Origin: Candidatus Abyssobacteria bacterium SURF_5
Lineage (GTDB): Bacteria; Abyssobacteria; SURF-5
DNA: 26,725 bases
Reading direction: 5' to 3'
NCBI GenBank assembly: GCA_003598085.1
Contig: QZKU01000116.1
Coordinates: forward strand, 1-26,725
Positions 5,246 to 18,459 of the stretch are shown one piece after another (positions within the stretch are counted from its first letter, which is position 1; the number at the start of each line of letters is the position of its first letter). Below the pieces are notes generated by a model that saw only the letters and a program-made list of their open reading frames with translations, made no database searches and was not told the origin of the DNA. The position numbers were made by a program, and so were the translations under genes.

Positions 5246-6050
5246 TTTTTCCTCCGACCCGCGCTCCGGAGGCCGCTATATCGCGTTGCCGATCGGCCAC
5301 GTACCGGTACAGGCGGTTGATGGCCAGCTTGTACTCGAACTTTTCGGAGATATCAATGAACTCGATGCCCAGAGCATCGGCCTCCGCCGATGAGCGTTCT
5401 TCGATGCGGCGGATGATTCCTTTCAGAACAAGTGGACTCTCCTCCGGTTGCAAGGCAAACCACATGCCCAGCTTCGTCCCCACGACCAAAGCATGCGCAT
5501 CGCCTTTGTTGATTGCCAGCAGCATTCCGCCAACGCTGATGTTGAGGATTTCTCCTTCGAACCTGATTTGTGACGGAAAATTCCACGCGCCCGGTTCCTG
5601 GATGAACCAATTCTTCTTGTCGCCGATGACGCCGCACTCCACGGAAATTGGTTTTCCCTGTGGGACCGGAACGCGAAAGAACATGCGTCGCTGCCCGTTC
5701 TTAAGGATGTTTGGATAGGTGATCTCGAATGCGGAAACCGTTCGCTTGCTGGCGAGAGTGAACATCATCTTGTGGATGATGCTGCTCTCGAAGAAATAGC
5801 GGTCGTTGTTCAGGGCGAAGAAGACCGAAATTTTGATGTTGGGAGTGAGTGCGATCGCAGGACCGTCGGTAACGGGATGATCGATCACGAGCCGCCGCGT
5901 GCTCGGGGTGCGGCGCATTTCAAACATGCGGCTCTTGTAGCGATAGACCATATCGTCGGCTTCGGCCGTAACCGTCAGGGGTACGTTATAGACGCACGCC
6001 AGTTCCAGCAGGCGTTCGATTCGCGTTGGAGAAACAAGGTCCTCTTTCAC
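5232..6050 (-). CDS. YcgR-like PilZ-domain protein (c-di-GMP receptor)
   Basis: A 272-residue cytoplasmic protein with an N-terminal YcgR-type split-barrel (about residues 5-115) and a C-terminal PilZ domain (about 118-255). Both c-di-GMP motifs are visible: RxxxR in QRRMFFRV (R122 and R126) and NxSxxG in NISVGG (170-175). YcgR proteins bind c-di-GMP and typically act as flagellar brakes; no flagellar gene is nearby, so the target is unknown. The start is GTG at 6050, with AGGGAG about 10 nt upstream, and it lies 13 nt after the homocysteine methyltransferase stop. It is therefore probably read from the methyltransferase operon, which is an unexpected link. Confidence 0.83.
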   Translation of the reverse strand: MKEDLVSPTRIERLLELACVYNVPLTVTAEADDMVYRYKSRMFEMRRTPSTRRLVIDHPVTDGPAIALTPNIKISVFFALNNDRYFFESSIIHKMMFTLASKRTVSAFEITYPNILKNGQRRMFFRVPVPQGKPISVECGVIGDKKNWFIQEPGAWNFPSQIRFEGEILNISVGGMLLAINKGDAHALVVGTKLGMWFALQPEESPLVLKGIIRRIEERSSAEADALGIEFIDISEKFEYKLAINRLYRYVADRQRDIAASGARVGGKNEAR

Positions 6051-11159: not shown

Positions 11160-11921
11160 ATGGCGATTGACAGGTTCACTTTGGCTGGCAAAGTGGCGGT
11201 GGTCACCGGAGCAAGCAAGGGAATCGGCAAGGCAATAGCACTCGGTTTTGCCGGCGCTGGTGCGGATCTGGCGATATGCAGCCGCAAGGAAGAGAATTTA
11301 GAGCCGGTAGCCGCTGAGATTGAGCGGCTTGGCCGAAGGGCTTTCGCCGCCGTCGCCGACGTGAGCAAGCGCGACGACATCGAGCGATTTGTTTCCGATA
11401 CCCTCGGCAAGTTCGGCCGCATCGACATCCTCGTCAACAATGTCGCCCGCAACATCATGTCGCCGATCATGAACTTGCGCGAGGACGGCTGGGACAAGAT
11501 TATTTCGACCAATCTCAAGAGCTACTTCCTTTTTTGTCAGGCTGTCGGACAGGTGATGATGGGGCAGGGAAGCGGCGTGATCATTAATATGTCTTCGACG
11601 GCCGGCCAGAAGGCCGCTCCGCTGCTCGGAGCCTATAGCATAAGCAAAGCGGGTGTCGACATGCTCACGAAAGTGCTCGCCAGAGAACTCGCCGGCATCG
11701 GCGTCCGCGTCAACGCCATTTCGCCCGGCATGGTAGAAACCTCTTTCAGCCAGGCGATCTGGAGCAGCCCGGAAATGTACGGAGAGGTTATTCGCGATAT
11801 TCCCTTGGGTCGTCTTGCGACGACCGAAGAGATCGTAGGGCTCGCCATCTTTCTCGCATCTGACGCTTCAAGTTATGTGACCGGGTCTATCGTGAATATA
11901 GACGGAGGGGCGATGACATAA
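11160..11921 (+). CDS. Short-chain dehydrogenase/reductase (FabG-like)
   Basis: A 253-residue classical SDR. The Rossmann cofactor motif TGASKGIG is at 16-23, the NNVA variant of NNAG at 93-96, the catalytic Ser in NMSSTAG (about 146), and YSISK supplies Tyr159 and Lys163. The C-terminus ends in VTGSIVNIDGGAMT, as in 3-oxoacyl-ACP reductase and gluconate/glucose dehydrogenase-type members. Arg42 after the second strand (ICSRKE) favours NADP(H). The substrate cannot be read from the sequence. The ATG has an AAGGAG site and its own strong promoter. It is convergent with the zinc-ribbon gene, only 23 bp away. Confidence 0.9.
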   Translation: MAIDRFTLAGKVAVVTGASKGIGKAIALGFAGAGADLAICSRKEENLEPVAAEIERLGRRAFAAVADVSKRDDIERFVSDTLGKFGRIDILVNNVARNIMSPIMNLREDGWDKIISTNLKSYFLFCQAVGQVMMGQGSGVIINMSSTAGQKAAPLLGAYSISKAGVDMLTKVLARELAGIGVRVNAISPGMVETSFSQAIWSSPEMYGEVIRDIPLGRLATTEEIVGLAIFLASDASSYVTGSIVNIDGGAMT

Positions 11922-11944
11922 GGGGCTTAACGGATGATTCTCCT

Positions 11945-12382
11945 TTACCAGGGGCTTCCTTTGCCCCGCCTGGAATCGATGTGCGCCATTCGTTTAACGA
12001 AGCTATAGCATGCTGAAAAGAGTGAATGTATTCTCCATCTGAAACGTCTTCGCACCCCCGCCAAAAAGGCTGCGGACCCTGTTATCACGGCATCGCGGCA
12101 CGAGGGACAAAGAAATTCTATAGAGTTCCCGGCGCGATTCTCCACCACCAGGGTGGCTTCCGATGACATCAACTGGCTGCAGTTCGAGCAGGTGATCATC
12201 CTGCTGCAGTCGGCGCAGACGTAGAAATCCTTCCTGGAAAGGGTCAGCAACGCAATCGGCTGCCGGGAAAAGTAGATTTTTCCGCATGAACAACAACTCA
12301 GCAGCCTGTCGCAGAAGGCGGCTTTCGCGTGTTTTCCGGACTCTTTATCTTCGCCCGCCGGGGTCGGATTTTCATCATACAT
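11945..12382 (-). CDS. Zinc-ribbon protein of unknown function
   Basis: A 145-residue protein. Its centre carries four CxxC knuckles (CCSCG, CADCS, CSNCS and CPSCR, about residues 30-95), enough for two zinc sites. The C-terminal 40 residues are Arg-rich and basic (VRRRFRWRIHSLFS, SRRGKGSPW), suggesting nucleic-acid or membrane contact. I do not recognise the family. It lies 27 nt after the BCAM0308-like gene, probably as the third gene of the same transcript. The Shine-Dalgarno site before the ATG is weak (GAGAAG). Confidence 0.6.
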   Translation of the reverse strand: MYDENPTPAGEDKESGKHAKAAFCDRLLSCCSCGKIYFSRQPIALLTLSRKDFYVCADCSRMITCSNCSQLMSSEATLVVENRAGNSIEFLCPSCRDAVITGSAAFLAGVRRRFRWRIHSLFSACYSFVKRMAHIDSRRGKGSPW

Positions 12383-12409
12383 TATGAGATCACTTCTCTT
12401 TCCGCCCTT

Positions 12410-12853
12410 CTAAGGATATTGTGTCCATTTGACGGCCACGGTCCCTTCGCTTTGCTTGTTCCGGGGCCGGTGGCCCGGCGTGTTCCTGTAAATTTGCATC
12501 CTTCCTTTATAGGCTTTTTTCAATTGTTTCGCGATATGAATCGCCAGGGTTGAATTGACCGTTTGAACTTTCATTTTCTGGCCGTTGCTGTTGATGTCGA
12601 GAATGCGCGAGCAGTGGTTGCGGGCCTGCTCGATCCGCTCTTCCCGCCGGATCATCCGCATGACTTCTTCCGGGCGCGAGGCGATCACTTCTCCTTCAAG
12701 ATAAACCGTGCCGAAGACGATTTTGTCTCTCATTCGCTTGCACCCTGTACACAGCAGAAATTCCGGATTGGCCAGATGGTTCGAGGAGTGGGGACACGGC
12801 GCGCTCCATTTCCTGCCATCGTGAATAGCATGGCAATTGGGGCATATTCTCAT
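12410..12853 (-). CDS. BCAM0308-like/NMD3-type zinc-ribbon protein
   Basis: A 147-residue protein starting MRICPNCHAIHDGRKW. The two CxxC pairs (CPNC near the N-terminus and CTGC about 35 residues later) form a zinc ribbon. The rest matches the layout of BCAM0308-family proteins: a segment on exported or carried basic residues (IVFGTVYLEGEVI), then RREERIEQARNHCSRILDI, then LAIHIAKQLKKAYKGRMQIY, ending VAVKWTQY. The family is related to archaeal NMD3-like proteins; its function is not established. The frame stays open to 13021, but the ATG at 12853 has a near-perfect GGAGGTGA site 6 nt upstream, so the shorter start is used. Confidence 0.68.
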   Translation of the reverse strand: MRICPNCHAIHDGRKWSAPCPHSSNHLANPEFLLCTGCKRMRDKIVFGTVYLEGEVIASRPEEVMRMIRREERIEQARNHCSRILDINSNGQKMKVQTVNSTLAIHIAKQLKKAYKGRMQIYRNTPGHRPRNKQSEGTVAVKWTQYP

Positions 12854-12905
12854 ACGGTCACCTCCGACACCAGGAGCCACCCGCGGCCTGCCGAGGAAGG
12901 ATCTT

Positions 12906-13139
12906 TTACTGGGTAACGATATTAGTGGACGTTCTGAGGACCCCTCCGATCGACTGAATCTTCTCAACCACGAATTTTCCCAGCAGGTTAATATCGGCGG
13001 CATCAACAAAAGCGATGACATCTATTGGACCGGTAACCACATGGCTCTGCTTGACTCCTTCAATCTGCGCAAGTTTGCGGTTTACTTCGAGCGCTTTCCC
13101 CTGGATGCATTCCACAAAGATATATGCAGAGATGGCCAT
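12906..13139 (-). CDS. Stand-alone Lrp/AsnC ligand-binding (RAM) domain
   Basis: A 77-residue protein consisting only of the beta-alpha-beta-beta-alpha-beta ligand-binding fold of Lrp/AsnC regulators. GPIDVIAFVDAADINLLGKF and GGVLRTSTNIVT are the diagnostic segments, and the N-terminal helix-turn-helix is absent. Such SMRL-type domains form dimers or octamers and may bind amino acids; they can modulate full-length partners. The ATG has a GGAGGGC site. It is the first gene of a run with two zinc-ribbon proteins (52 and 27 nt gaps). The 13140-13282 gap upstream has only a weak -10-like TATAGT. Confidence 0.88.
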   Translation of the reverse strand: MAISAYIFVECIQGKALEVNRKLAQIEGVKQSHVVTGPIDVIAFVDAADINLLGKFVVEKIQSIGGVLRTSTNIVTQ

Positions 13140-13282
13140 CTCTTTTCGCCCTCCTTGTCCTGGTCAAGCCGCGGCAAGAAATGGTGTATATCTTCTATTC
13201 ATACTATATCGACCTGCACGTCTTTTGGAAAGGGAGAGCACCGACTTTTCCCGGCGCGCGGCTGGAATGGCGGGCGTCAATT

Positions 13283-14209
13283 TCACTCGGATTCGGGGCT
13301 GAAGTTTACGTGGGAGATGCGAAACCTCTCGCGCAGAGGGCGCTCGAGGCGCCGGAAAACTTCGGCGCACTCGCTGACCCTGAAGTTTTCACGAAAAACC
13401 AGGTGTGCGGTCATCGAGTACATTTGAGACGTGATCTCCCAGACGTGGACATCATGCACGTCGGCCACTTCCGGCGCTTCGTCACGGATAAGCCTCACCA
13501 CTTCATCGATTTTGATATGCCTGGGCGCCGTTTCGAGAAGGATGTGGATGGAATCCCTCAAGAGATTCCAGCTCCAGAAGAGAATGACGATCGCAATCAG
13601 GATGCTCAACAGGGGGTCGATGAAGTACCATCCGGTGAAGTAGATGATAGCGGCGCCGCCGACGATTCCCAACGATGAGGCGGTGTCGCCGAGCATGTGC
13701 AGGAATGCGCTTCGGACATTCAGGTCTTCCTTCCCGACATCGTACAGGATTACCGCGCTCAGGAGGTTGACCGCGAGCCCGAATACGGCGACGAGCAGCA
13801 TCGGCACCTCCTTGACGGGAGCGAGGTGGAATAAGCGGTTGAAGCCCTCATACAGAATGAGCGCGGTTATCACCAGGAGCGTCACGCCGTTGAACAGGGC
13901 CGCCAGCACCTCGACTCGATAGAGGCCGAAGCTGCGTTTCGGGTGCGTCGGGATCGCTGCGACAAGGATCGCGAGAAAACTGATCAGGAGTGCGAAGAAG
14001 TGGGTGAGCATATGGCCGGCATCACTGAGGAGGGCGAGGCTGCCGGTGAAGAGGCCGCCAATCACTTCGATGATCATCGTACTGCCGGTCAAGGCCATCG
14101 TCAGGCTGAGTCGCTTGCGTTCGGCCGCACGGTGCACATGCCGGTGCTCCGGCTCGTCGCGCTCGTGGAAGTGCTCGAGAGAAACCAGTGGCTGATGGAG
14201 ATGGATCAT
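13283..14209 (-). CDS. CDF-family metal cation efflux transporter
   Basis: A 308-residue inner-membrane cation diffusion facilitator with about six membrane segments and a C-terminal cytoplasmic domain (about 215-300, VADVHDVHVWEITSQM). The N-terminal 26 residues are His-rich, suggesting cytoplasmic metal capture. TM5 has the expected HxxxD (H171 and D175 in LHMLGDTAS). TM2 reads DAGHMLTH, giving H66 and H70 where most CzcD/ZnT-like members have HxxxD. The transported metal is probably Zn, Cd or Fe/Mn. It is the last gene of the LamG-EncFtn operon, 17 nt after EncFtn. The Shine-Dalgarno site is weak, so coupling is likely. Confidence 0.9.
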   Translation of the reverse strand: MIHLHQPLVSLEHFHERDEPEHRHVHRAAERKRLSLTMALTGSTMIIEVIGGLFTGSLALLSDAGHMLTHFFALLISFLAILVAAIPTHPKRSFGLYRVEVLAALFNGVTLLVITALILYEGFNRLFHLAPVKEVPMLLVAVFGLAVNLLSAVILYDVGKEDLNVRSAFLHMLGDTASSLGIVGGAAIIYFTGWYFIDPLLSILIAIVILFWSWNLLRDSIHILLETAPRHIKIDEVVRLIRDEAPEVADVHDVHVWEITSQMYSMTAHLVFRENFRVSECAEVFRRLERPLRERFRISHVNFSPESE

Positions 14210-14225
14210 GTGCGGCGAAGTTCCG

Positions 14226-14528
14226 CTAATCCGCTTCCTCTTCGATTTCAGTAATCGCTTTGCCGTCCTTGAACAGGTATGTCTTCATCTGCTTGGCGAA
14301 TTCGGGATCGTTCCGCCTGATCCATTCCATAAGCATGGCGGAATGTTCTTTTTCCTCGTCGCGATTGTGCTTGAGGATATCCTTCAATTCGAGATTATCC
14401 GTGGCGTCTATCCTCTGCTGATACCAATCCATCGCCTCGATCTCTTCTTTGAGAGAAATCCATGCGCGGTGCAGGTCGAGCGTGGCTTTCGACAGCTTTT
14501 CATACAGTTCATGATATGTTCCCGCCAT
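14226..14528 (-). CDS. Encapsulated-ferritin-type protein (EncFtn)
   Basis: A 100-residue two-helix ferritin. It matches the EncFtn family closely: SLKEEIEAMDWYQQRIDA, then LKHNRDEEKEHSAMLMEWIRRNDPEFAKQMKTYLF. The iron-site residues of the Rhodospirillum protein (E31, E32, E34, W38, E62 and H65) correspond here to E28, E29, E31, W35, E59 and H62, and all are present. EncFtn forms a decameric ferroxidase. The usual C-terminal encapsulin-targeting peptide is absent: the protein ends KAITEIEEEAD. No encapsulin gene is in the window. It is coupled to the upstream gene by a TAATG overlap, with a GGAGG site. Confidence 0.9.
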   Translation of the reverse strand: MAGTYHELYEKLSKATLDLHRAWISLKEEIEAMDWYQQRIDATDNLELKDILKHNRDEEKEHSAMLMEWIRRNDPEFAKQMKTYLFKDGKAITEIEEEAD

Positions 14529-15283
14529 TAGTCGCCTCCTTCTCCCGGGTCGTTTTGGGAGTTGATATCAGTGCTTCCTCGAGCCTCTTGCATCACCTTA
14601 ATCGCGTCTACTCTGGTTTCCACTATGCCTTTTCCGCCCACGTAATTGGCGTATACGCCAAAGAACCCGCCGGGGATGCGATCGTCCTGAAGCGGACAGC
14701 CCGGCAGTTCCTGCTCATCCCAGTATACCCAAAAATTGTTCCCGGCGCACCTCACGGCCATTTTATGCCACCCGCTCTTTTCAGAAACCCCGCCCGGTAT
14801 TTCCGCCTGCTTCCAGGACTTGATGTAGACCGGGTAATTATTCGTGTCGCTGCCGACGTATGCGAATGACAGCCGCTGCTCGGCATCGAAGTGCGTCGCG
14901 AACCGGTAGAAACGCTCGTTCTGCGGGTCGACCCTGACGGCTATCCCGTTGAGCGGCGCTCGGCCCTCCGGGACGACGACCGCATACACCCATGCCTCCA
15001 TCAGGTAATCGCGCAGATGCCGCATGCCTGAAAAGGAAAGCGAAGCGAATCCGCCAAGCTGCTGATTGGTTTGCCGGCCGGCCCAGACACCTTCGGGGGA
15101 AGTTGGATCGAGGATCGGCATGAGCGGGTCCTGACTGAATCCGGGAAACGGAACCCAGTTGAGGTTGAGCATTCCATCGTCGAAGCTTTCCGAGAAGAGC
15201 GGTGTCATATAGTCGGCATTCGTCGACGAAATAGAAAACAGGAGAACGAGACACAATAGAGTCGAAAATTTTACGGGACGCAT
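14528..15283 (-). CDS. Secreted LamG/DUF1080-like carbohydrate-binding protein
   Basis: A 251-residue protein with a signal peptide (RPVKFSTLLCLVLLFSISSTNA). The mature chain is a jelly-roll: LFSESFDDGMLNLNWVPF starts it, and GWHKMAVRCAGNNFWVYWDEQEL plus GGFFGVYANYVGGKGIVETRVDAIKV close it. This pattern is shared by LamG and DUF1080 (3-keto-disaccharide hydrolase-type) domains. Catalytic function is not established. The C-terminus is Ser/Asp/Glu-rich, possibly a tail. It is first in an operon with EncFtn and the CDF transporter, although its export does not obviously fit iron storage. The ATG at 15283 has an AAGGA site; the frame extends to 15334. Confidence 0.78.
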   Translation of the reverse strand: MRPVKFSTLLCLVLLFSISSTNADYMTPLFSESFDDGMLNLNWVPFPGFSQDPLMPILDPTSPEGVWAGRQTNQQLGGFASLSFSGMRHLRDYLMEAWVYAVVVPEGRAPLNGIAVRVDPQNERFYRFATHFDAEQRLSFAYVGSDTNNYPVYIKSWKQAEIPGGVSEKSGWHKMAVRCAGNNFWVYWDEQELPGCPLQDDRIPGGFFGVYANYVGGKGIVETRVDAIKVMQEARGSTDINSQNDPGEGGD

Positions 15284-15321
15284 TGCTGATTTTCCTTTGG
15301 TGTCGCGGGCCCTATTGCCCC

Positions 15322-15330
15322 AATATAACA
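15322..15330 (-). promoter_or_regulatory. Extended -10 promoter of the LamG-EncFtn-CDF operon
   Basis: On the minus strand TGTTATATT is a -10 (TATATT, 15322-15327) with a TGn extension; the -35 is not recognisable. Transcription near 15315 would leave a leader of about 32 nt before the ATG at 15283, agreeing with that start. Confidence 0.55.
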
Positions 15331-15395
15331 TCATCCGAAATGGCCGCGCTAGCGCGAAAGCGCCCCGGTCAGGAAGGCGTGATCAGCAAAAGAGA

Positions 15396-15433
15396 GGCGG
15401 CCGAAATTCCGCTTTTCGGGAACTTCGGCCGCC
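15396..15433 (-). terminator. Intrinsic terminator of the cytochrome gene
   Basis: GGCGGCCGAA (15396-15405) pairs perfectly with TTCGGCCGCC (15424-15433), with further TTCC/GGAA pairing inside. On the minus strand it is followed by TCTCTTTTGC. It lies about 40 nt past the stop codon at 15474. Confidence 0.75.
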
Positions 15434-15473
15434 ATGTCATTTTACTTGGAATATCAGAAGAAACGGCACATCA

Positions 15474-16022
15474 TCATTCGGCGGCTTCAGGGACTGGATG
15501 GGCAATTTTTGCCGCCATCTCGTCATAGTTGAAGCCTTTGTAGGTCGGGCTCTCTTCGTTGTGGCACTTCTTGCAGACATCGGCCGTGGGCAGAATCAGG
15601 CCGTTCTGCAGGGCCAGATTCTGGTCCTTCATGATGTTCATCTTCTTGTAAGCACTGCCGGGCCCGTGGCAGGACTCGCAGCCGACGCCCTCTTCTTTGG
15701 TATAGGTCGCTTCGAAGCGGCTGTCAGGAAGACCATAACCGGTAACGTGGCACTTCAAGCAGTCCGCGCTCTCCTGCGGATTGGCAATTCCTTTTTCCGC
15801 GCCGATCTTTTTGGCCTCTTCGGTTGCCAGGGTTGCATAGGCTTTGGAATGCTGCTGTTTTTCCCAGATCTGATACTGCTCACCGCTCTTTTTCGTCATG
15901 TGGCAGGTCTTGCAGCCTTTGACGCCGACATAATTAAATTCTTGCGCGGGGACAGGGGCGCTAAGAAGTGCGACGATAACGAGCGCGACAAAGGCGGCAA
16001 CAACTAGTGGTACAGGTTTCAT
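15474..16022 (-). CDS. Tetraheme cytochrome c (c554-like)
   Basis: A 182-residue periplasmic protein. A signal peptide (MKPVPLVVAAFVALVIVALL, then SAPVPAQ) is followed by four CxxCH haem-binding sites: CKTCH (37-41), CLKCH, CESCH and CKKCH. Spacing of the sites, and the segment EQYQIWEKQQHSKAYATL before the second, are typical of cytochrome c554/c'-family multihaem proteins that carry electrons in the periplasm. No catalytic partner or quinol oxidoreductase is encoded nearby. The frame opens at 16109, but the ATG at 16022 has a strong AAGGAG site and starts the signal peptide. Confidence 0.9.
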   Translation of the reverse strand: MKPVPLVVAAFVALVIVALLSAPVPAQEFNYVGVKGCKTCHMTKKSGEQYQIWEKQQHSKAYATLATEEAKKIGAEKGIANPQESADCLKCHVTGYGLPDSRFEATYTKEEGVGCESCHGPGSAYKKMNIMKDQNLALQNGLILPTADVCKKCHNEESPTYKGFNYDEMAAKIAHPVPEAAE

Positions 16023-16084
16023 GTTCTCCTTCCTTTCAATTGGAACTTTTCCCCCAATTCGCGGATCTGTCTTCCCAACTCGAT

Positions 16085-16090
16085 AGTATA
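16085..16090 (-). promoter_or_regulatory. Possible -10 element of the cytochrome gene
   Basis: TATACT on the minus strand matches five of six consensus -10 positions and lies about 63 nt before the ATG at 16022. No convincing -35 is present. Confidence 0.35.
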
Positions 16091-16113
16091 GACGCCGCCC
16101 GATTATCATTTAT

Positions 16114-16356
16114 TCAGGCTGCAGCTTTGAATAGAGCGGGATCTATCCGCATGAAATCCCCGTGGCAGAAAGTGACATCTTCTGAAAATCCTGCCGTCTC
16201 CAGGAATTCACAGGCAGATGCCGCTAAACAGAAAAGTCCCTTTTCTGCTTCGAGGGCCAGCGAATGTAGCAAAGAGGAAAATTTGTGGAAATGATCGTTT
16301 CCACGAGGGCGGTATGAGCAACCGCATTGATATGAAGCCCCCATTGGCTCAACCAT
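16114..16356 (-). CDS. Possible small leaderless Cys-rich protein
   Basis: An 80-residue open frame in an otherwise empty 400-bp gap; I do not recognise it. It has five Cys residues (CGC near the N-terminus, then FCLAASACEF and TFCHGDF) and a helical centre (HKFSSLLHSLALEAEKG). A TATAAT with TGn extension lies only 9 nt before the ATG, and no Shine-Dalgarno site is visible, so if real it would be translated from a leaderless mRNA. Codon use looks reasonable but this alone proves little. It might instead be a small RNA region. Confidence 0.4.
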   Translation of the reverse strand: MVEPMGASYQCGCSYRPRGNDHFHKFSSLLHSLALEAEKGLFCLAASACEFLETAGFSEDVTFCHGDFMRIDPALFKAAA

Positions 16357-16365
16357 ATCGACCCA

Positions 16366-16394
16366 ATTATACCAATACTCGTTGCAAAAAGCAA
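16366..16394 (-). promoter_or_regulatory. Promoter with perfect -10 before the 80-aa ORF
   Basis: On the minus strand TATAAT (16366-16371) is preceded by TGG (TGn extension), and TTGCTT lies 17 bp upstream (16389-16394). Transcription should start near 16359, almost at the ATG at 16356. The -35 overlaps the terminator hairpin of the ankyrin gene. Confidence 0.6.
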
Positions 16395-16405
16395 TCCATT
16401 GCTTT
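16386..16405 (-). terminator. Intrinsic terminator of the ankyrin gene
   Basis: AAAGCAAT and ATTGCTTT (16388-16395 and 16398-16405) form an 8-bp stem with a very small loop. On the minus strand a run of Ts follows. It starts about 21 nt after the stop codon at 16426. Confidence 0.65.
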
Positions 16406-16425
16406 CCCCTTTACCGGAATCGACC

Positions 16426-17079
16426 CTACCGAAAAAGGATAATATGGGCATCGGGTATGATCGGCAGATCGGGATGCGTCAGAGCATACCAATTCTGAAG
16501 CTCATATAGAGAAGCCCTGTTTCCCGCCGATTCGGCAAACGCCAATGCCGTCCATCCATTCTCTGCGCGCGCATCGATGTCGGCGCCGCTCCGCAGAAGA
16601 AGCCGCACCAGCTCGGGCTCACCGCTCTCGGCAACCACCATCAGCGGCGTCAAGCCATCAGGGCCCTTGGTATTTGGGTCGGCGCCATACTTCAGCAATA
16701 TCCTCGCTGTCTCCGGGTGCTCGTTCTCCACCGCGTAAAAGAGGGCGGTCTTGTTGGTTTGCGGGTCAATAGCATTGACATCGGCCCCATATGTAATTAA
16801 TCTTTCCACTATAGAAGAATGTCCTTCCTCGGCTGCGCGGGTTATCGCGGGCGCCGTTCCCGCTCCTGAAACATTGGGGTCCATGCCTGCAATCAGGTAC
16901 AATTCGACCGCACTCAGGTCGCCTGTCTCTGCGGCCGCGACAAAGTCTTCTCCGGTAAAACGATATCCGAGCCGTTGCAGGCGCTCGCGGGCCTCTTCGT
17001 CCTCCTCCGGATTCTGAGCAGCGGCCGGAATGGTGATAAGCAGCAGCGATAGCAGTGAAATCATCGCCATTCTCAGCAT
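16426..17079 (-). CDS. Exported ankyrin-repeat protein
   Basis: A 217-residue protein with a signal peptide (LRMAMISLLSLLLITIPAAA) and four to five ankyrin repeats across about residues 45-195. GADVNAIDPQTNKTALFYAVENE, GADPNTKGPDGLTPLMVVAESGE and GADIDARAENGWTALAFAESAGN show the GADxN turn and the TxL(x)xA helix start clearly. Ankyrin stacks mediate protein contacts, here probably in the periplasm. The frame opens with GTG at 17088, but the ATG at 17079 is placed 6 nt after GAGGTG and is preferred. The partner is unknown. Confidence 0.85.
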   Translation of the reverse strand: MLRMAMISLLSLLLITIPAAAQNPEEDEEARERLQRLGYRFTGEDFVAAAETGDLSAVELYLIAGMDPNVSGAGTAPAITRAAEEGHSSIVERLITYGADVNAIDPQTNKTALFYAVENEHPETARILLKYGADPNTKGPDGLTPLMVVAESGEPELVRLLLRSGADIDARAENGWTALAFAESAGNRASLYELQNWYALTHPDLPIIPDAHIILFR

Positions 17080-17201
17080 TACATTCACCTCTTTTAATAA
17101 AATTGAATATTGTTTCCAATAAAGTATGCATACATAAACAGGAACCCGGCAAATGAAACACCATCAACGCACATAAAGGAAACGGGAAACCAGATCCCGC
17201 T

Positions 17202-17230
17202 TTGTCCGTGGATCATGGTTCATATATAAT
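17202..17230 (+). promoter_or_regulatory. Promoter abutting the membrane-protein start
   Basis: TTGTCC (17202-17207) and a perfect TATAAT (17225-17230) are 17 bp apart. Transcription near 17237 would begin within 2-3 nt of the ATG at 17239, implying a leaderless mRNA. Confidence 0.65.
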
Positions 17231-17238
17231 GGAACTAT

Positions 17239-18459
17239 ATGCAGATATCAATCCCGCACAAGAACAGCCCGCTTGAACATGTAACCCGGGCAGCCGGGTG
17301 GTCGACAAAGCGAGCAGCGACCGTTGCTTTCGTAAGCGTTATCGTCTACCTTCTTCTGATCGCATATCAAGTTGCACCATATGGATACAACCTGACCAGC
17401 CTGATCCGCGTCGGTTCAACCAATCCATTTTATGATCCTGCCATTCTTGGGGACGGCGTCGTAGTCTTTAACGATCCGAAATCGGGCGGCGACGGCTATG
17501 ACGGCCAGTTTTACCTGTATATGATCAAGGGACTGCTGATGGGTGAAGATGGGATTTCCAACCCGTTCCGGTACCAGCGAATCCTGTATCCGGTCGTTGT
17601 GTATCTATTCGCACTGGGGCAGCCTGGTCTGATACCGATCTCGATGCCGCTCGTCAACCTGCTCGCCATCTCGATCAGCTCGCTGCTTCTTTGGAAGCTG
17701 GTGCGTGATTTCGGCTTGCGCCCCAAATACCTGTTCCTGTATACGCTGAACATCGGGTTCCTCGTTGCCGTTTTCTATGATGTCGCGACGCCGCTTTGCA
17801 TTTCGCTGGTGGTGGCATCTATATACTTTCTTGTCCGCGAGCGGCTGTGGCTGGCGTCGGCGATGATGGCCCTTTCGCTGCTCACGCAGGAGAACGGCGC
17901 CATCGTGCTTGCGGTTGTGACCGGATGGCTGCTGGCGCAAAGGAACCTTCGTGGGGCGATCGTTTTTTCCTGCTCGGTAGTCCCGTGGACGGTGTGGCAA
18001 CTTTTCCTGTGGCTGCGGGAAGGCAAATTGCCGTTCATCATGTCCGGCAACCATTTTCGCCCGCCTTTTGCGGGGATGATTTCCTACATTTCAGCTTTCG
18101 AGTGGGCGGGCGACTGGCAGCATATGCTGAGGGACGCGAGCGTTTTCCCGATGATGCTTTTTGTGACTGTCCTGCTGGTGGTAAGCGTCTTCGAGATGAA
18201 GAGAAATCCGCAGGTTTTCACCCTGCTGCTTGTTGTCCACGCGCTGGTCGGCGTCTGTTTCAACAAGGAACAGATCTGGAGTTCTACGATCAGTTCGCCG
18301 GCGCGAGCGCTTGCCGGCGTCTTCCCTTTTCTCGTGATCTGTTACGCGCAGAACCCGTCCAGGAGGCTGCTGTTGCTTATCGTTCTCAGCGTGCTGTTGT
18401 CGCTGATGGGAATTGCCCGTATCCTGCTCATGCCATCCCACCCCTATTTCGTTACGTGA
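17239..18459 (+). CDS. Polytopic membrane protein, AZOBR_p60025-like (GT-C-type)
   Basis: A 406-residue integral membrane protein with about nine to ten hydrophobic segments, the first at residues 28-47. The loop after TM1 has SGGDGYDGQFYLYM followed by FRYQRILYPVVVYLFALGQP. This GYDGQFY/YQRILYP signature is shared by the AZOBR_p60025 family, which is linked to cell-surface glycopolymer formation and resembles GT-C glycosyltransferases. The substrate is unknown. No Shine-Dalgarno site is usable, as GGAA is only 4 nt from the ATG. No other in-frame start exists before the first membrane segment. It is convergent with der. Confidence 0.8.
   Translation: MQISIPHKNSPLEHVTRAAGWSTKRAATVAFVSVIVYLLLIAYQVAPYGYNLTSLIRVGSTNPFYDPAILGDGVVVFNDPKSGGDGYDGQFYLYMIKGLLMGEDGISNPFRYQRILYPVVVYLFALGQPGLIPISMPLVNLLAISISSLLLWKLVRDFGLRPKYLFLYTLNIGFLVAVFYDVATPLCISLVVASIYFLVRERLWLASAMMALSLLTQENGAIVLAVVTGWLLAQRNLRGAIVFSCSVVPWTVWQLFLWLREGKLPFIMSGNHFRPPFAGMISYISAFEWAGDWQHMLRDASVFPMMLFVTVLLVVSVFEMKRNPQVFTLLLVVHALVGVCFNKEQIWSSTISSPARALAGVFPFLVICYAQNPSRRLLLLIVLSVLLSLMGIARILLMPSHPYFVT

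What the first reader, a model, noticed from the sequence alone, without database searches (positions are those of the whole stretch)
13283..15283. Encapsulated ferritin without encapsulin, coupled to a CDF metal exporter
The EncFtn protein keeps all six iron-site residues but ends without a targeting peptide. It is locked in a coupled operon (TAATG overlap, 17-nt gap) with a secreted LamG-like protein and a CDF exporter with a His-rich N-terminus. EncFtn is known as encapsulin cargo. A free EncFtn next to an efflux pump suggests a shell-less iron-oxidation or metal-handling module in which ferroxidase and export act together.
Basis: partly seen in the sequence, partly recalled or inferred. 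Interest (0 to 1): 0.75.

Follow-up and report, generated by a model that had tools for sequence, protein, structure and literature searches.

The report
Shell-less encapsulated-ferritin beside metal exporter gene
A deep-subsurface bacterium carries an iron-oxidising protein of a kind usually locked inside a protein shell, but with no address tag and no shell gene, and makes it from the same gene cluster as a probable zinc pump; the tagless protein is common in bacteria, the pairing with a pump was seen only in this small bacterial lineage.

Summary
Window 14226-14528(-) encodes a 100-aa EncFtn-family protein with all six metal ligands and no targeting peptide, lying between a secreted beta-rich protein (TAATG overlap) and a CDF exporter (gap 16 nt, not 17). 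The genome (98.5% complete; candidate phylum Abyssobacteria) has no Family 1 encapsulin gene.

'EncFtn without encapsulin' is not new as a class: the 2024 review calls it s-FLP (N. europaea NE0167, 3k6c) but leaves open whether it is encapsulated. I tested this on 96 genomes: 0 of 80 with only tagless EncFtn have a Family 1 encapsulin, 15 of 16 with a tagged EncFtn do. Two genomes with both forms keep the tagged copy beside the shell gene. Tagless EncFtn is therefore most likely a free-standing ferroxidase; 17 proteobacterial copies sit in the rubrerythrin-RFO-DUF3501 cluster.

Apparently new: EncFtn directly followed by a CDF, in all three genera sampled and in none of the other EncFtn loci examined. 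That CDF has an unusual HH-HD metal site conserved in all three, predicted zinc-type, so direct iron export is unlikely. LamG is not a fixed part (2 of 3). Best model: free EncFtn oxidises Fe(II); the CDF keeps inhibitory Zn(II) low. The coupling is inferred only.

The parts
14226..14528 (-). Tagless EncFtn-family ferritin-like protein (s-FLP class), 100 aa; metal ligands E28, E29, E31, Y36, E59, H62
   Evidence: PF22277 E=1.3e-37; PDB relatives; alignments; AlphaFold model and fold match
13283..14209 (-). CDF transporter, His-rich N-terminus, A-site quartet H66/H70-H171/D175 (HH-HD)
   Evidence: PF01545, PF16916; PDB alignment to ZnT8/ZnT3; A-site comparison
14528..15283 (-). Secreted beta-rich (LamG/ConA-like?) protein, signal peptide, overlaps EncFtn start by 1 nt; present in 2 of 3 genera
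12906..13139 (-). Stand-alone Lrp/AsnC ligand-binding (RAM) domain, conserved next gene in all three genera
   Evidence: PF01037 E=1.8e-13; synteny
12410..12859 (-). BCAM0308-family protein, conserved in all three genera
   Evidence: NF040826 E=1.1e-22, 80.3 bits, under its cut-off of 100; synteny
11945..12382 (-). Cys-rich small protein, conserved in all three genera
   Evidence: no clear Pfam family
15396..15433 (-). Predicted intrinsic terminator between upstream cytochrome gene and the LamG-EncFtn-CDF genes
   Evidence: 15-bp stem with 10 G-C pairs

Best explanation
EncFtn at 14226-14528 is a free cytosolic ferroxidase of the tagless s-FLP class. It most likely forms the usual ring of ten subunits and oxidises Fe(II) at the subunit interface without any encapsulin shell. 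It is probably made from one message with a CDF exporter that most likely pumps Zn(II) (perhaps Co or Cd) out of the cytosol. Working model: the pair keeps a diiron protein working in a cell exposed to Fe(II) and oxygen or peroxide bursts. EncFtn removes Fe(II); the exporter removes Zn(II), which is reported to inhibit EncFtn. Shown here: protein family, ligands, absence of tag and of a Family 1 shell gene, conserved adjacency. Inferred: decamer, ferroxidase activity, single transcript, zinc specificity, the functional link.
For: Family and ligands. No PF04454 encapsulin in this genome, with positive controls ringing, nor in the two others of the phylum at E<=10. Across 96 genomes, tagless-only 0/80 and tagged 15/16 have an encapsulin (Fisher p about 1e-16, not corrected for ancestry). 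The two genomes with both forms (G044, G267) have a second, tagged EncFtn touching the encapsulin gene. The only PF00210 ferritin-type match in this genome is a rubrerythrin. EncFtn-CDF adjacency with 16-19 nt gaps in all three genera while the upstream flank differs. CDF A-site HH-HD in all three. Literature: EncFtn assembles with Fe(II), Zn(II) and Co(II) (PMC5012862); its ferroxidase activity is inhibited by Zn(II) (PMC7762939); Zn-type CDF sites are His-rich (PMC5703985).
Against: A-site composition predicts CDF metal only loosely (PMC5703985). Three genera of one family could keep neighbours by descent alone. Isolated EncFtn aggregates on adding iron (PMC5012862), so a shell-free form needs some other sink for Fe(III). 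On phylogenetically independent, well supported branches there are only 3 tag contrasts, mostly concordant and none opposed; too few for significance. Family 2 or other shells were not excluded: the PF19307 search rang in no control genome.
Confidence: 0.6

Rival explanations
1. Iron-detoxification pair: the CDF is an Fe(II) exporter like FieF, and EncFtn buffers or oxidises what is left. Both act on iron.
For: Adjacency; FieF-type CDFs relieve iron stress (cited in PMC7762939).
Against: The A-site is HH-HD, not FieF's DD-HD; the CDF scores far better against ZitB (233 bits) than FieF (63 bits) and is closer to human ZnTs than to YiiP.
Confidence: 0.15
2. Peroxide and oxygen defence: free EncFtn is a partner of rubrerythrin-type chemistry, and the CDF is an unrelated neighbour kept by descent.
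For: Seventeen proteobacterial tagless EncFtn genes have both RFO and DUF3501 on the same strand within 1.5 kb, most with rubrerythrin too. Published context for RBR-RFO-DUF3501: PMC5114695.
Against: No rubrerythrin gene in this window's cluster; the rubrerythrin of this genome lies elsewhere beside Fur-type and peroxiredoxin genes. Rru EncFtn showed no peroxidase activity (PMC5012862). CDF adjacency is strict in all three genera.
Confidence: 0.2
3. EncFtn is still encapsulated, through an unrecognised C-terminal signal and an encapsulin missed in the assembly or of another family.
For: The 2024 review considers a putative s-FLP tail signal possible; PF19307 search lacked a positive control.
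Against: No PF04454 gene in three Abyssobacteria genomes and in 0 of 80 tagless-only genomes, including isolates.
Confidence: 0.05

Closest known systems
s-FLP class of EncFtn (NE0167 of Nitrosomonas europaea, PDB 3k6c; PMC11202242)
   Same: About 95-100 aa, all ferroxidase ligands, short tail after ...YLFTD, no targeting peptide; 61% identity to the aligned NE0167 stretch
   Different: Tail is ITEIEExxx rather than PIAHE; a CDF gene follows directly, which was not seen beside other tagless EncFtn genes
Tagged EncFtn of Rhodospirillum rubrum (Rru_A0973, 5da5) and Haliangium ochraceum (5n5f)
   Same: Fold and six metal ligands
   Different: Those carry a SLGIGSLK tag and an encapsulin gene; this has neither
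Aerobic-type rubrerythrin cluster RBR-RFO-DUF3501 (PMC5114695)
   Same: Another setting of tagless EncFtn, with both RFO and DUF3501 near it at 17 loci
   Different: None of these genes is in the window's cluster
ZitB-type CDF transporters
   Same: Overall sequence, His-rich N-terminus, TM5 HxxxD
   Different: TM2 is HxxxH instead of HxxxD; shared with 8 of the 26 closest non-Abyssobacteria CDFs examined, none beside an EncFtn

Membership tests
EncFtn-like (PF22277) | Whole-model match over gathering score | tested here: met
   127.8 bits against 27
EncFtn-like (PF22277) | Two long antiparallel helices plus short helix, as in 5da5 and 3k6c | tested here: met
   H14-42, H46-73, H75-85; matches at 1.2-1.4 A
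EncFtn-like (PF22277) | Ferroxidase ligands E32, E62, H65, Y39 and entry site E31, E34 (Rru numbering) | tested here: met
   E29, E59, H62, Y36, E28, E31
EncFtn-like (PF22277) | Decameric ring and ferroxidase activity | not testable with these tools
   needs purified protein
Encapsulin-associated ferritin-like protein (TIGR04535) | Score over the curated cut-off | tested here: not met
   118.7 bits against 125; the profile's last 20 positions are not matched
Encapsulin cargo system (Family 1) | C-terminal targeting peptide | tested here: not met
   ends ITEIEEEAD; no tag in any frame
Encapsulin cargo system (Family 1) | Encapsulin shell gene in the genome | tested here: not met
   no PF04454 match, controls ring; none in G001 and G002
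s-FLP class (tagless EncFtn) | EncFtn core with about 10-residue tail and no tag | tested here: met
CDF transporter | Cation_efflux and ZT_dimer domains | tested here: met
Zn-type CDF (ZitB-like) | HD-HD A-site quartet | tested here: not met
   HH-HD, not among the quartets listed in the parts of PMC5703985 read; so filed as a CDF, not as a ZitB orthologue
Zn-type CDF (ZitB-like) | Metal transported is Zn(II) | not testable with these tools
   needs transport or complementation assay

The most novel reading that the evidence does not exclude
A shell-free EncFtn and a zinc-type CDF form a dedicated two-protein metal module: the exporter keeps Zn(II) off the EncFtn diiron site so that the ring can act as a cytosolic Fe(II)-oxygen or Fe(II)-peroxide sink without a storage shell. 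Tagless EncFtn would then be a general non-storage ferroxidase whose partners change by lineage (CDF here, RFO-DUF3501-rubrerythrin in proteobacteria).
Probability: 0.25. Interest if true: 0.65.

Novelty: new variant of a known kind. Interest (0 to 1): 0.45.

Why it matters
EncFtn is described in reviews as a protein that cannot handle its ferric product without an encapsulin shell (PMC7762939, PMC8346489), and the 2024 review leaves it open whether the tagless forms are encapsulated. The genome survey here indicates they are not. That makes 'what does a ferroxidase ring do without a store?' directly testable, with two conserved gene settings as leads: a CDF pump here and the rubrerythrin-RFO-DUF3501 cluster in proteobacteria.

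Tried and rejected
Riboswitch control of the CDF: no Rfam match at gathering scores in 11900-17300. Hidden tag by read-through or frameshift: none in any frame. Family 2 encapsulin (PF19307): no match, but no control genome rang, so uninformative. LamG fold: no Pfam match up to E=5 in the window copy, model pLDDT 56, not searched further. EncFtn-CDF linkage elsewhere: not within 6 kb (less where the contig ends) of the 79 best EncFtn relatives in other genomes, nor in the Acidobacteriota-group loci of about 3 kb, and no EncFtn near the 26 closest other CDFs examined. Two apparent exceptions to the tag rule (Sulfuricella G044, Hydrogenophilales G267) dissolved: each has a second, tagged EncFtn beside its encapsulin. 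One tagged genome (G242) has no encapsulin found; it is a draft of unknown completeness. My encapsulin query was a wrong-strand ORF, and its CAP row is ignored. The plasmid search with the CDF only showed that such CDFs are widespread (under 60% identity).

Full report
What is there. On the minus strand of the window, 15283-14528 encodes a secreted beta-rich protein, 14528-14226 a 100-residue EncFtn-family protein, and 14209-13283 a CDF transporter. The first two genes overlap as TAATG, with AAGGAGG before the EncFtn start; the EncFtn-CDF gap is 16 nt. A predicted terminator with a 15-bp stem at 15433-15396 separates them from the upstream c-type cytochrome gene. Downstream on the same strand follow a stand-alone AsnC-type ligand-binding domain, a BCAM0308-family protein and a small Cys-rich protein.

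EncFtn identity. PF22277 matches end to end at E=1.3e-37; PDB relatives are Rru_A0973, NE0167 and Hoch EncFtn; the AlphaFold model has pLDDT 89.5 and fits the first two at 1.2-1.4 A. All six metal ligands described for Rru EncFtn are kept, as E28, E29, E31, Y36, E59 and H62. TIGR04535, the encapsulin-associated subfamily, is just missed (118.7 against 125 bits); the last 20 positions of that profile are not matched.

No shell. The genome is 98.5% complete and has no PF04454 encapsulin, while three control genomes ring. The two other held genomes of the phylum have none even at E<=10. The organism belongs to the candidate lineage Abyssobacteria: G002 corresponds to the contig of MAG SURF_17, from anoxic deep-subsurface fluids (PMC6121073). 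Shells other than Family 1 were not excluded.

The tagless class is known. [quoted passage not shown] I tested this. Of EncFtn relatives found in named genomes and in the phylum of one relative, I classed the tails and searched each genome for PF04454. Genomes with only tagless EncFtn: 0 of 80 with encapsulin, counting the window's genome and G001. Genomes with tagged EncFtn: 15 of 16. In both genomes with a tagless EncFtn and an encapsulin, a second EncFtn with a tag (RLTVGAMKGA; PTIGTLKEQST) lies directly before the encapsulin gene. On the tree the tag changes about 7 times, at least 3 on supported branches, and tagged and tagless forms occur side by side inside Actinomycetota and Pseudomonadota. 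Independent contrasts are few (3) but none oppose. So tagless EncFtn goes with absence of the shell; this is a genome-level association, not a biochemical test.

Neighbours elsewhere. In 17 proteobacterial loci the tagless EncFtn has both RFO (CCG-domain Fe-S protein) and DUF3501 on the same strand within 1.5 kb, most with rubrerythrin as well. PMC5114695 described the RBR-RFO-DUF3501 cluster; the passages I read do not mention EncFtn. This sets free EncFtn in a peroxide-defence setting.

The CDF link. In all three Abyssobacteria genera, EncFtn is followed after 16-19 nt by a CDF (72-74% identical to the window's), then by the RAM, BCAM0308 and Cys-rich genes, while the upstream side differs. 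The LamG-like gene is present in two of three. None of the other EncFtn loci examined has a CDF of this type nearby, and none of the 26 next-closest CDFs examined has an EncFtn nearby. The link is thus lineage-specific as far as searched.

The CDF metal. Aligned to ZnT8 and ZnT3, the A-site is H66-H70 in TM2 and H171-D175 in TM5, that is HH-HD; it is the same in all three genera and in 8 of those 26 other CDFs, while the rest are HD-HD. HH-HD is not among the quartets named in the passages of PMC5703985 that I read. Three His and one Asp, and much better scores to ZitB than to FieF, argue for Zn(II) and against Fe(II), but that paper also warns that the site predicts metal only loosely.

How it most likely works. 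Inference: EncFtn works as a free ring that oxidises Fe(II); this genome's only PF00210 match is a rubrerythrin, so EncFtn is the only ferritin-type ferroxidase detected with these profiles. Published work says Zn(II) assembles EncFtn and inhibits its ferroxidase, so co-expression with a Zn-type exporter would keep the diiron site in iron. Against this: shell-free EncFtn aggregates with excess iron in vitro, and the gene order may be plain descent. I give the free-ferroxidase part high confidence (about 0.9), the shared operon about 0.85, and the zinc link about 0.3.

Verdict. Observation confirmed; interpretation partly right. Tagless EncFtn is a known class, its shell-free state is supported here by survey, and the CDF operon is a new lineage-specific variant.

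Noticed in passing
L016, L018, L020, L021, L028, L033, L039, L040, L042, L047, L050, L065, L067, L072, L073 (EncFtn near position 6001 in most): Tagless EncFtn is a fourth member of the proteobacterial rubrerythrin-RFO-DUF3501 cluster; the passages of PMC5114695 that I read do not mention it.
   Followed up: partly
L119:4572-5793 and L120:5164-6470: Two Proteobacteria (Sulfuricella and a Hydrogenophilales MAG) carry both a tagged EncFtn-encapsulin pair and a separate tagless EncFtn elsewhere in the genome.
   Followed up: yes
L128, L129, L131, L132, L133, L134, L136, L143: CDF transporters with an HH-HD A-site form a small group outside Abyssobacteria, in several families; metal unknown.
   Followed up: partly
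L157:809-2447: The window's genome has a rubrerythrin beside Fur-type regulator and peroxiredoxin genes, and no other PF00210 match.
   Followed up: partly
window 12410-12859: BCAM0308-family gene kept beside the EncFtn-CDF pair in all three Abyssobacteria genera; role unknown.
   Followed up: no
L008 and L011: A Clostridiales MAG and an Aminicenantes MAG share several genes around closely related tagless EncFtn genes, suggesting transfer or mis-binning.
   Followed up: no
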